From positions 62,001 to 126,000 of the forward strand of contig RHGM01000003.1 in NCBI GenBank assembly GCA_003724185.1: a stretch of 64,000 bases of DNA, read 5' to 3'. This document shows, in pieces, positions 1 to 15,928 of this stretch (positions within the stretch are counted from its first letter, which is position 1; every line of letters begins with the position of its first letter). Position numbers and translations under genes: made by a program. The stretch is from Porphyrobacter sp. IPPAS B-1204 (GTDB lineage Bacteria > Pseudomonadota > Alphaproteobacteria > Sphingomonadales > Sphingomonadaceae). Below the pieces are notes generated by a model. The model did not search any database and was not told the origin of the DNA. It saw only the letters and a list, made by a program, of their open reading frames with translations.

Positions 1-3000
1 GAGCAGCCTTGGGGCATATCCGGCACCGCCCGACGCCTCATCGAACAGATAGATGGAGGGCACCCGGCGCCCCAACTGACCGTCCCTAGCAGCAACTGAG
101 ATTCCAAGTTCGCGCGGCTCAATACCTAGCCAACGCGCGAGGCTTTCGCGCAGCGCGGCCCCCGCTGCCCAGGCAGCACCATCGCTTTCAAGTCCTGGCA
201 ACTGGATCTCGACTACATCGGTCAGCAGTTGATGCCCTAGGGCCAAGGGGCGCGTAATCGCGTAGCCTTGGTCGTTACCCGGACAGCGATCGATGGCCTT
301 CCGGTCGCGCGGCGTCAGCGGCCAGTGATCCTTGAGCGCATCGGTGCCCGCTTCCCCCGCTCGTCCACACTCCAAGCAGATCTCGTAGCCCTTATCGTTT
401 GGCCCGCGCGAATGGTGGTAGATGTATCCATCGTGCGATGCGCGAATGCGTCCCGTTTCCGGCTGCAACAACGGCTGCCAAAAGACGTCCCCGACGCTGA
501 CTTTTGGTGACTTGGGTTCGATGTAAACAGCTTGATCGGTGTCAGCATGGGGCTGTGCGTTCCAGTCGACCCTAAAGCCAGCCGGCTCAAGGAACTGCTC
601 GGTCTTGACGTTCGGATCCCCGCAATGGCCGCAGCGTTCGGGCATCTTGTGATCGGAGCTGGCGCCGCCACATTGATCGCACCACCAGGCCCAACGCAAG
701 TTCTGAGGCTCGCGCTGGCCGCTATCGATCGGGCTCAACCAATTGAGGGATACGCCAGCCGACTTCCAAACAAGTCCATCGACCACAACCTCAGCGCCCG
801 GTGCATATTCTCGGATGGCAATGTCGGCGTTGCGGGTCGGGCATTCGTATCGCCGATTCCTCGTGCCTTCCTCGTCTGAGCGGTGGCGCTCTTGCGCCTT
901 TTGGGTCTCTGCGCACAGCGTATCGAAAGGCACAACGGCTGTGGGGAATCCACTTCCCGGGATCAACGAGCGATTTGCCAGCTCCTTCAGCAGGTATTCC
1001 TTGCACAGGCGCCGCGCTTGGAATTCGATCGCTTTCTTTGCAGGGCCATCGAGCGCATCGACATCGTCCTTCAATCGCTGCCAAGTCTGCCGAAAGCTTG
1101 CCGCGTCTTCCGCGAAGCTGACCGCTGTGTGCTCCCGGACCTCGCTGTCGAATGCGAGGCCCGTACCTTGCAATAGACGTTGAAGACCAGCTTCCGTCTT
1201 CTGTGCAGTGCTCGGCAGGCGAACCCATTCACAAAAAGCGTCCACAGGAGCCAGGCCCTCGAACGGTTGAAGATCGGCCCTGCATCCAAAGAAGTCGCCC
1301 GTCTTGGTGCGGGCGAACTCACCATCCACCTCTCGAAACCACTCCGCGAGCAAATAGGCATTCGCGTGACGCTGAGCGATTCGGTCCGAATCCATAGACA
1401 CCCGCGGTGAAGCAAGCTTGCGGGCTAGGTAGCTGGCCGGATCGGCGAAGGTTTCCAGATCGAGCGGGGTGTTGCGCGCAATTGTCAGGCTTGTCGAAAA
1501 GCCTTGGCCTCGTCTGCCCGCTCGACCGGCACGCTGATTGTAGTTAGCAATCGAGGGAGGAACATTGGTCATCATGACCGCCTCGATTGAGCCAATGTCG
1601 ACGCCCATCTCCATCGTCGTCGAACAAGCGAGGAGGTTGATATCGCCTTGCTTGAACTGTTCTTCGAAATCCCGCAGCCGGTGTGGAGGTTGCTGCGCGC
1701 TATGTTCTTCGGCGCGAAGATAAGGGGTCGCGAGCGCGGCCTGGTCGTGCCAGTTCATCCAGATGCCGCGCTCGCGCAGCTGCGATACCTCATCGCTTGT
1801 ATCAAGCCACGTTGCTATTCTTTGGCGCTCTTCCCCCGAGAATGGCCTCGTCGCGGGAAGGCGCGGGAACTCCACTTCGCTGACAGGCAGGCTTGCGAAA
1901 ACCTTCCCTGCGCTGACCAGATTAGCCGACCTACCAAAAACCAGTCGCGGCAAAACACGGCGGGTAAGCGGGCACAGCCAGGCCTTGGTCACCGCCTCGA
2001 CTTCGGCAGTCTTTTCGAGACGCAGGCTGTACGTTCCGCCAACTCCCGACAATAGCGGCTCAAGCTGACCCCATGCCACTCGCATGAGCTGGTTGATCTC
2101 GTGACAATCCCGTTGCGAGGAGAGATCCAGATTTAGGGCAGCGGCGAGCAGGAGAATGGAATCGGGCTGCCGCCCCTTCAAATTGACCGTTGGCCAAGAG
2201 ATGTCGCGCTTTACACCCGGTGGTTGATCGGGGCCGATCACATTGCGTGGGCGAGCGCGCCCTGGCATCCAGCGAGCATCGCCGTCGTCAACCTCAAGGG
2301 CGAACTGGCCGCGCAGGTAATCAACCATGTAATAGAGAAAATCGCGCCAATCCTGAATCGTGTAGCCCTTCTGGGCCACGACTTCGGGCAGCTTTTCCTG
2401 ACCAATTCTCTCGATGCTTGGGAAGCGGAGCCGCGCAAGTCCGAGCGTCTCCATTGCGTTAGCATTTCGCGGTCGGCGAGCGAGTTCGCGCAAAAGCATA
2501 AAGCGGGCGAGCGCCTCACGATTGTCATGAAAGCGCTCACTGCGATCCAGATCCCAGACTTTGGCCATCATCCCAATGGCGGGCTCCGCGGCGAGTGCTG
2601 AAACGAGGTCCTTCCACGGTACTCCTGCGGAGCCTCCACCACAGAGCTCAACGTCGATCTTTGCGATGTCGTCCTTGAAGGCTGGCATATCGGCCACAAG
2701 ACTCGCTAAAGCTGCCCTTTTACCGAGCAGCTCCTCTCTTCGTTCTGGGGTTATGTCATTGCCGTGGGCCGCCTTCTGGACCGCATGGTAGATGAAGCCG
2801 CGAACAAATCCGCGCTCGCCGTTGGTTTCGATGTTGGCGGCGAACCGGGCGGTGCCTTGTCGGCTGTCAGAGAAGCTGATCAGCTGACGGCCTTCAAAAG
2901 GCAGCGCATGTTCTGCCTCCTGCGGTGAGACGCCCTCCAACAGAATTGGCGCTGCATTCTGGGTCAGGAACGGGGTGCCAAAGCGGAAAGGCAGCATTGC

Positions 3001-13964: not shown

Positions 13965-15928
13965 TATTCAGCTGCTTCCCTGTTCTGGTTCGCAAGAATT
14001 CCGGCTAGCTCCTCAACAGTGTCCCGCAGGTTTGTAAGCGGCTCAAGCGCACCGGCCAGCTGCGCAACTCCCTCGCCAAGGGCACGATCGACTTGGCCAA
14101 CGCGTTCATTAAGGTTCGTCGCGTGGCTGCCTGCCGCATCGGTGATCTTCTCAAGCGCGGCTCCGAGTGATCGATCGACTTCCTCGAATCTGGCTCGATA
14201 CTCAGACCAGGCAGAGGAGGCAGCGGCCGCAGTCTGGTTCAACGATACGGCGAGCTGCCGCATCTCTTCACGGGCACTTTCGGACGACTGCGCATTCTTC
14301 GTGACAACAGCTTCAACCGATTTCACGGCTTCGGCAATTGATACCGCAGACTGGCGGACTGGACCGGCCGCCGCTTCCACATCATTGGCAACAGTTCCGA
14401 ATGCTGTGGCCAGATCGTTCGAGCGAGCGGCGACCTGTTCGATGGCCCTTGCGTGATCGCCGATCGCAGTCTGAGCGGAAGATAGCCGATCAGCTGAAAC
14501 AGAAATTGCACTGCCGGCGTCCTTCATGCTCGTGACTAGCGGCGCGCCTGCTCCGTTAAAGCGTTCCACGAACTCCGCGAAGGACCTTTCCATTGCCTCC
14601 TGGCCAATGCGAGCAGCGTCATTTGCGGCGTTGCTCGATGCTTCGCCAAGTTGAGTGGCCGCCGCAGCCAGGCCTGCCTTCATGTCGTCAAGGGTGGAGC
14701 CAAGGCTGCTGAGGAGCTCATCCATGCGTTGGCGTGCCAGTGCGCTTGCCTGCTCGTTTTCCTCTCGCATGCGGTCGGCAACCACGCCAAAATTCCGGTT
14801 AAGCTCGCCGAACGCAGTGCGCATCTCTTCGGAGGCTTGGGAAAACCGGCGTACCGCCTCCTCAATTTGCCGGTCAGCCTCACCCGTCTGCTTCTCCAGT
14901 CGGTCTGACATCGTAGCCATGGACGCGGTCATCGCCCCGATGGCGTTCGCAAGGCCCGCCATTTCGGCGCCCGCGCTCGATGCGATTGCATCGCGGACGG
15001 CCTCGCCGCCGCCACCGCTGATCTTGTCGATGCCCTGCTGGATAGAACCCAGATGGGTGATCATTGGCGCCATCTGTTTCTCCAGCGCACCATCGAGTGC
15101 AGCCGCCAATTGCTCTGAGAAGGTCCTGAGAGCCGGAGTCTGCTCTTTCAGCTGCTCAAGCTGATCGCTCGCGATGCGCTGCGGTGGCAGATAGGCCATG
15201 CCATGCTCGAGCTTGTCGCAAAGCATGGAAAGACCGTCGTCAATGCGTTTGCCAAAACGATAGTCGTAAGAGCGCAGGACGATCGAAGCCACGATACCGC
15301 CGACCGAGGCCCAAAACTTAGCGCCCGCGACCTTCATGAGTTCATTAAGACGTTCCTGCATGACGTCGACACCGCCGCTGAAGTCGAGGGTCGACAGGGC
15401 TGCAATAATGCCAAGGAAAGTGATCAGCAATCCGACTGCAATAAAGATATTCGCAAACCAGTTTAATCCGCGATGGCGGTCTCCGAGGCTCACAAAGAAA
15501 TGTTCAGGCCTCGCTGAATTTTGCAAAACATCGGCCGACGGATCTACGATCGTCTCCCGATACTCTTCCCAGGTCCTGCGAAGTGGCATCGCCTCGGCGT
15601 GACTTGCATCCATCATCTGTGCATCGATGTCGTGGAAGCGCCTTGCAAAGCCTAGGCGCGCTTCATCGACATCGGTCATGCTGCCGCCAGTCACTTCGTC
15701 CAGCAGTCGGACACGCGCGTCAATCGCTTCCGCCAGCGGTGCGTGATACTTGCTTTGATATCTATACGATATTGCGAAAGCAGTTCCTATCAACACGATT
15801 GCCAGAAACGCAGCCATCGCATCACCGATAAGCGGTATCTCGGTGAAGAAATAAATCAGCCCCTGACCGAGCCATTCTGTAATTTCCACGGAGCCCCCTT
15901 GAACACATCGAGTGATTTGGAGCTCCAA
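13964..15928 (-). CDS. zorA: ZorA-like MotA/TolQ/ExbB motor protein with long helical tail
   Basis: TM segments near the N-terminus; GLNWFANIFIAVGLLITFLGIIAAL and FWASVGGIVASIVLRSYDYRF; long Ala/Glu-rich tail. TAA/ATG overlap with zorB. Confidence 0.88.
   Translation of the reverse strand: MELQITRCVQGGSVEITEWLGQGLIYFFTEIPLIGDAMAAFLAIVLIGTAFAISYRYQSKYHAPLAEAIDARVRLLDEVTGGSMTDVDEARLGFARRFHDIDAQMMDASHAEAMPLRRTWEEYRETIVDPSADVLQNSARPEHFFVSLGDRHRGLNWFANIFIAVGLLITFLGIIAALSTLDFSGGVDVMQERLNELMKVAGAKFWASVGGIVASIVLRSYDYRFGKRIDDGLSMLCDKLEHGMAYLPPQRIASDQLEQLKEQTPALRTFSEQLAAALDGALEKQMAPMITHLGSIQQGIDKISGGGGEAVRDAIASSAGAEMAGLANAIGAMTASMATMSDRLEKQTGEADRQIEEAVRRFSQASEEMRTAFGELNRNFGVVADRMREENEQASALARQRMDELLSSLGSTLDDMKAGLAAAATQLGEASSNAANDAARIGQEAMERSFAEFVERFNGAGAPLVTSMKDAGSAISVSADRLSSAQTAIGDHARAIEQVAARSNDLATAFGTVANDVEAAAGPVRQSAVSIAEAVKSVEAVVTKNAQSSESAREEMRQLAVSLNQTAAAASSAWSEYRARFEEVDRSLGAALEKITDAAGSHATNLNERVGQVDRALGEGVAQLAGALEPLTNLRDTVEELAGILANQNREAAE

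What the first reader, a model, noticed from the sequence alone, without database searches (positions are those of the whole stretch)
1..15928. Zorya type I and Druantia III-like modules fused into one six-gene cluster on a mobile element
Seen: six minus-strand genes in order, a MotA/ExbB-like motor, OmpA/MotB protein, EH-signature-like protein, SNF2 helicase, 1106-aa protein, DUF1998 giant helicase. Overlaps: zorA/zorB TAATG, zorB/zorC 4 bp, zorC/zorD 7 bp, last two genes 11 bp; the only gap is ~81 bp between zorD and the 1106-aa gene. Known: ZorABCD defines Zorya I, and a DruH + DruE pair defines Druantia III; from memory, Zorya II and Druantia III have been reported to cooperate in E. coli. 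Inference: a Zorya I plus Druantia III composite transcribed together may act as one system, with motor sensing feeding two helicase/nuclease arms, rather than two adjacent systems.
Basis: partly seen in the sequence, partly recalled or inferred. Interest (0 to 1): 0.9.

Follow-up and report, generated by a model that had tools for sequence, protein, structure and literature searches.

The report
Zorya I and Druantia III joined locus
Two known anti-phage defence systems, a membrane-motor system (Zorya I) and a giant-helicase system (Druantia III), sit back to back as one six-gene block that is conserved and inherited together across many Sphingomonadales bacteria, which suggests they work as partners, although this has not been shown by experiment.

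Summary
Six co-directional genes are a complete Zorya I (ZorABCD) followed, after 81 bp, by a complete Druantia III (DruH, DruE). DruE runs 1.27 kb past the window edge and is intact there (1,999 aa).

The block recurs. All 17 homologous loci with upstream sequence, in at least eight Sphingomonadales genera, have zorD directly before druH, usually 66-109 bp apart. Zorya and Druantia distances correlate (zorD-druE r = 0.94), and some relatives cross genus lines, so the block moves as a unit. One locus (Altericroceibacterium) has the same Zorya clade joined to a distant Druantia III in the opposite order, which looks like an independent pairing. Distant Zorya I and Druantia III loci mostly stand alone.

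Zorya II-Druantia III synergy is published for E. coli, and Zorya I/Druantia III genome-level co-occurrence for Pseudomonas aeruginosa. The fixed Zorya I-Druantia III array was not in the papers searched. All 12 carriers tested lack RecC and have AddA, so the published RecBCD-dependent mechanism cannot apply unchanged.

Verdict: a real, recurrent, co-inherited composite of two known systems. Cooperation is likely. Being "one system" is unproven, and decayed or single-module relatives speak against it being obligate.

The parts
1..4728 (-). druE (5' part in the window; intact in the genome, continuing 1,271 bp left of base 1; 1,999 aa in all): YprA-like SF2 helicase with Zn-binding module and C-terminal PLD-like region
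   Evidence: DruE3 2049 bits; DEAD, Helicase_C, MZB; Druantia DruE 9tu7, E 1e-254; PLD fold
4679..7999 (-). druH, 1,106 aa, probable phage sensor of Druantia III
   Evidence: DruH3 2078 bits; profile matches solved DruH 9tud, E 6e-43
8000..8080 (-). 81-bp zorD-druH junction, AT-rich; the same spacing class (66-109 bp) in 15 of 17 relatives, the other two having an inserted ORF
   Evidence: (no promoter- or terminator-like site)
8081..11839 (-). zorD, 1,252 aa: SNF2 helicase plus a C-terminal MIT_C/PLD-like domain (about residues 1,085-1,240) absent from the solved ZorD
11833..13239 (-). zorC, 468 aa, EH-signature protein
   Evidence: PF15611, E 1e-38
13236..13964 (-). zorB, 242 aa, MotB/OmpA-like; transmembrane Asp of the ion path aligned with the solved ZorB
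13964..15928 (-). zorA, up to 654 aa (start codon uncertain by about 14 codons), MotA/ExbB-like with long coiled-coil tail
   Evidence: (ZorA1 1163 bits)
16433..17077 (+). S24 (CI/LexA-like) repressor, divergent from zorA; conserved (56-59%) at the same place in most relatives; candidate regulator or element repressor
17543..23099 (-). MobF (TrwC) relaxase and TrwB-type coupling protein: mobilisation genes beside the defence block
44956..46167 (-). tyrosine integrase next to tRNA-Tyr (46365-46450): probable integration end of the element
   Evidence: no attachment repeat found

Best explanation
The locus is a composite defence operon: complete Zorya I (zorABCD) followed by complete Druantia III (druHE), probably transcribed from one promoter region upstream of zorA and moved between Sphingomonadales as a unit. 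Shown here: gene identity, order, spacing, recurrence, co-inheritance, and absence of RecC from the host genomes. Inferred from work on relatives: ZorAB, an ion-driven motor in the inner membrane, senses envelope disturbance at injection and brings the ZorC/ZorD helicase to early phage DNA. DruH senses late phage structural proteins and, with DruE, attacks ssDNA-containing replication intermediates. Proposed here: the two arms are layered in time and cooperate through shared DNA intermediates, as for Zorya II plus Druantia III in E. coli, but without RecBCD; AddAB, or the ZorD and DruE helicases themselves, would supply the DNA-processing step. The two are best seen as partnered systems rather than one obligate machine.
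For: Family assignment of all six genes. The same order and strand in this genome and in all 17 homologous loci that have upstream sequence, in at least 8 named genera. Distance correlations across the module border (zorD-druE 0.94, zorD-druH 0.93) equal those inside Zorya (0.81-0.92), and tree tips pair identically, including Novosphingobium with Sphingobium pairs that cross genus lines. An opposite-order array, druHE-zorABCD, in Altericroceibacterium with Zorya 61-76% but DruH/DruE only 30/43% identical, flanked by two IS6-like transposases, suggests a second, independent pairing. Flanks vary (type I R-M or BREX) while the six genes stay together. RecC in 0 of 12 carriers, AddA in 12 of 12. 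Mechanistic precedents: PMC13192584, PMC11890865, PMC12458937. Complementary phage ranges and co-occurrence of Zorya I and Druantia III in P. aeruginosa: PMC10889362.
Against: No expression or phage data. Strong distance correlation is also expected for any tightly linked genes. The module border tolerates insertions (L040, L041) and Zorya loss (L017), and the sister lineage L050 lacks Zorya. Distant Druantia III loci (15 checked) lack Zorya I in the flanks held. The published synergy was for Zorya II, whose effector ZorE is absent here, and it needs RecBCD.
Confidence: 0.62

Rival explanations
1. Two independent defence systems that happen to be neighbours in a defence island and are carried together by linkage; protection is additive and no cooperation exists.
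For: The island also carries BREX I on the left and other cargo on the right. Type I R-M replaces BREX in relatives. Sister Druantia without Zorya (L050) and distant Zorya I without Druantia exist. P. aeruginosa co-occurrence was explained by complementary phage ranges (PMC10889362).
Against: Only this pair keeps fixed order, strand and a short junction in the 17 loci while the flanks turn over. An opposite-order pairing with a different Druantia lineage (L059). Documented synergy for the sister pairing Zorya II-Druantia III (PMC13192584).
Confidence: 0.28
2. One obligate six-component system: ZorAB signalling activates both ZorD and DruE, and neither half protects alone in these hosts.
For: Tight co-directional order and co-inheritance. 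Both helicases end in PLD-superfamily domains by fold comparison.
Against: Each half is a complete, recognised stand-alone system. Zorya I and Druantia III each protect alone in other hosts (PMC10889362). Zorya-less DruHE loci occur. The ZorD C-terminal domain is also present in Zorya I loci without Druantia, so it is not specific to the composite.
Confidence: 0.1

Closest known systems
Zorya II-Druantia III(-ARMADA II) array of E. coli (ECOR19, ATCC 8739; PMC13192584, PMC12458937)
   Same: Zorya next to Druantia III on mobile elements; recurrent; shown to synergise; DruH and DruE homologous
   Different: Here Zorya is type I (ZorC and ZorD, no ZorE found), in one co-directional six-gene block with fixed spacing, in Sphingomonadales, with no ARMADA noticed in the immediate flanks (not searched for with an ARMADA model), and in hosts without RecC
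Zorya I and Druantia III co-occurrence in Pseudomonas aeruginosa (PMC10889362)
   Same: Same two system types co-occur more than expected and have complementary phage ranges
   Different: Reported as genome-level co-occurrence; the passages read do not describe adjacency or an operon
Canonical Zorya I (solved ZorD 8qy7; PMC11890865)
   Same: All four genes; SNF2 helicase aligned over residues 329-962
   Different: ZorD here carries about 290 extra C-terminal residues ending in a MIT_C/PLD-like domain; placed in fixed order next to Druantia III

Membership tests
Zorya type I | ZorA (MotA/ExbB-like) and ZorB (MotB/OmpA-like) | tested here: met
   ZorA1 1163 bits, ZorB1 271 bits; ZorB aligned to solved ZorB 8vvn, TM Asp kept
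Zorya type I | ZorC EH-signature and ZorD SNF2 helicase with intact ATPase motifs | tested here: met
   (ADDMGLGKT and DEIQK retained)
Zorya type I | Anti-phage activity of the four genes | not testable with these tools
   needs phage challenge
Druantia type III | DruE: YprA-like helicase with MrfA Zn-binding module and PLD-like C-terminus | tested here: met
Druantia type III | DruH partner encoded next to druE | tested here: met
Zorya II-Druantia III synergistic pair | ZorE (HNH nickase) as Zorya effector | tested here: not met
   no ZorE among the block and the neighbouring proteins scanned with PADLOC; ZorC and ZorD present instead
Zorya II-Druantia III synergistic pair | Host RecBCD (required for synergy; RecC nearly universal in such genomes, PMC13192584) | tested here: not met
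   RecC in 0 of 12 carriers (E. coli control positive); AddA in 12 of 12
Zorya II-Druantia III synergistic pair | More-than-additive protection of the two systems together | not testable with these tools
   needs phage challenge
Single transcriptional unit | Short co-directional junction without promoter or terminator | tested here: inconclusive
   66-109 bp, no consensus match in the 81-bp gap, but the scan is sigma-70 based; RNA data needed
Integrative mobilisable element | Integrase at a tRNA gene, relaxase, and flanking attachment repeats | tested here: inconclusive
   integrase, relaxase, tRNA-Tyr found; no repeat found; no VirB4 nearby

The most novel reading that the evidence does not exclude
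ZorABCD-DruHE is a single integrated defence machine of Sphingomonadales in which the ZorAB membrane motor licenses two PLD-tailed helicases (ZorD and DruE), coupling envelope sensing to late replication-intermediate attack without RecBCD.
Probability: 0.12. Interest if true: 0.82.

Novelty: new variant of a known kind. Interest (0 to 1): 0.56.

Why it matters
Zorya-Druantia cooperation is one of the few mechanistically described cases of defence synergy, and the published model rests on Zorya II, ZorE and RecBCD. A fixed Zorya I-Druantia III operon in hosts with AddAB and no RecC gives a natural test of whether the partnership itself, rather than ZorE and RecBCD, is what is conserved. The opposite-order array suggests the pairing arose more than once, which is stronger evidence for function than shared residence in a defence island.

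Tried and rejected
Single-protein scan of genome contigs with DruH found nothing; an alignment was needed. Viral contigs: no DruH relative. Plasmid records: only distant DruH (about 25%) and ZorD (33-44%). A sequence-profile link between the C-termini of ZorD, DruE and BrxL was not significant (hhalign E 0.03-0.19); fold comparison then placed the ZorD and DruE tails in the PLD superfamily separately, with a weak overall TM-score for DruE. A composite-specific role for the ZorD tail was rejected because stand-alone Zorya I loci also have it. A conserved small ORF in the zorD-druH gap was considered by eye and dropped, since the open frame is not kept between relatives. The S24 gene as a dedicated Zorya regulator is undecided: core S24 paralogues are common in the order. 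Attachment-site search failed.

Full report
What is there. The window is contig C8:62001-126000 of a 3.55-Mb genome. The genome is placed in the same genus as the genome whose 355,993-bp contig matches Erythrobacter cryptus, so it is probably an Erythrobacter-related member of the Sphingomonadales (inference). Reading the minus strand from 15928 down, the six ORFs are zorA, zorB, zorC, zorD, druH and druE. PADLOC profiles give ZorA1, ZorB1, ZorC1, ZorD1, DruH3 and DruE3 as best hits with very high scores. Pfam gives OmpA (weak), EH_Signature, SNF2 plus Helicase_C, and DEAD plus Helicase_C plus MZB. The druE gene, cut by the window edge, is intact in the genome (1,999 aa). Against solved structures, ZorD matches 8qy7 (DEAD/DEAH helicase, taken to be the solved ZorD), ZorB matches 8vvn, DruH matches 9tud and DruE matches 9tu7. 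ATPase motifs and the ZorB transmembrane Asp are retained in these alignments.

Surroundings. Left of druE are a 340-aa orphan gene and then a complete BREX type I operon facing the block. Right of zorA are a divergent S24 repressor, a small phage-like ORF, a MobF relaxase and a TrwB-type coupling protein, then ParB-like, ArdC-like, CARF, RES and helicase genes and a tyrosine integrase beside tRNA-Tyr. This looks like an integrative mobilisable element. No attachment repeat was found and no T4SS ATPase lies on this contig.

Recurrence. A DruH alignment scan of one genome per species gave 34 loci. Seventeen of them (DruH at least 64% identical, with upstream sequence) all have zorD before druH on the same strand. 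Where the contig allows, all six genes are present in the same order. Named genera are Erythrobacter, Novosphingobium, Sphingobium, Qipengyuania, Pontixanthobacter, Allopontixanthobacter, Tsuneonella and Sphingopyxis. Junctions are remarkably constant: 1, 4 and 7 bp overlaps inside Zorya (6 bp gap at zorC/zorD in L037 and L042), 66-109 bp at zorD/druH except L040 (1,035 bp) and L041 (941 bp), where an extra ORF is inserted, and an overlap at druH/druE. L047 carries frameshifts.

Co-inheritance. Across 15 loci, pairwise protein distances correlate between modules (zorD-druE 0.94, zorD-druH 0.93, zorC-druE 0.87) as well as within Zorya (0.81-0.92). Trees pair the same tips, including Novosphingobium panipatense with Sphingobium chungbukense, and a Novosphingobium with two Sphingobium. 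The six genes therefore move between genera as a unit. DruH is the most divergent protein and ZorA/ZorB the least, which fits DruH as the phage-facing part (PMC13192584). The zorD linker (residues 961-1080) is the most variable stretch. Downstream flanks change: co-directional hsdM/hsdS in nine relatives, BREX in this genome and L030.

A second pairing. In Altericroceibacterium xinjiangense (L059) the order is druH-druE-zorA-zorB-zorC-zorD, with 95 bp between druE and zorA. Its Zorya is 61-76% identical to the composite Zorya, but its DruH and DruE are only 30% and 43% identical. The array lies between two IS6-like transposases (family judged by eye). The same Zorya lineage has thus been joined to a different Druantia III in the opposite order.

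Counter-examples. L050 has a sister DruHE without Zorya. L017 keeps only a 60-aa zorD remnant upstream of druH and has an insertion in druE. Distant Druantia III loci (15 checked) have no Zorya I in the sequence held, and five distant full-length Zorya I loci in the order have no Druantia beside them. In the 301-genome order sample, 3 genomes have both where chance predicts far fewer (hypergeometric P about 1e-4 to 4e-4, uncorrected for phylogeny).

Mechanism. Published work gives the parts: ZorAB forms an ion-driven motor and recruits DNA-acting effectors (PMC11890865). [quoted passage not shown] Here all 12 carriers tested lack RecC and have AddA. If cooperation exists it must use AddAB or another route. 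The ZorD C-terminal extension folds like MITD1/PLD domains and the DruE C-terminus also matches the PLD superfamily, but the ZorD domain is also found in Zorya I without Druantia.

Prior knowledge. Papers holding both names were searched. Known: the Zorya II-Druantia III-ARMADA II array in E. coli (PMC12458937), its synergy (PMC13192584), and significant Zorya I/Druantia III co-occurrence in P. aeruginosa with complementary phage ranges (PMC10889362). No paper with both names also mentions a word beginning 'Sphingomon'. Subscription papers, including the 2024 synergy paper cited by these, were not read.

Verdict. 'One system' is an open, testable claim; partnered systems is the better reading.

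Noticed in passing
window 31985-37324 (+): A CARF-domain (Csx1/CARF5-like) gene followed by two long unknown ORFs (659 aa with a weak LeoB match, 426 aa with weak JetC/LmuB matches); possibly an uncharacterised defence operon on the same element.
   Followed up: partly
genome C8:46268-59475 (L005:1268-14475), left of the window: Complete BREX type I operon (brxA, brxB, brxC, pglX, pglZ, brxL) with a WYL gene before it, convergent with the composite; relatives carry type I R-M hsdM/hsdS after druE instead.
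   Followed up: partly
genome C8:59556-60578 (L005:14556-15578, -): 340-aa orphan gene downstream of druE with only five database matches, itself included; a 29% similar gene is inserted at the zorD-druH junction in L041.
   Followed up: partly
window 8081-8600 (zorD C-terminus): ZorD of Sphingomonadales ends in a predicted MIT_C/PLD-like domain (motifs DPYCC, HDR, GRGID) not present in the solved ZorD; BrxL in the same island has a similar-looking tail by eye.
   Followed up: partly
L030 versus window 4000-16000: A MAG carries the same island with near-identical ends (zorA 99%, the 340-aa gene 99%) but a diverged zorC-zorD-druH middle (down to 68% DNA identity around the zorD-druH junction), suggesting recombination or rapid change across the module border.
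   Followed up: partly
L017:8600-13600: Decayed locus: insertion element in druE and only the last 60 codons of zorD left before druH, with type I R-M upstream.
   Followed up: partly
window 37528-38559 (-): RES-domain protein, a typical toxin fold of toxin-antitoxin pairs; the partner was not examined.
   Followed up: no
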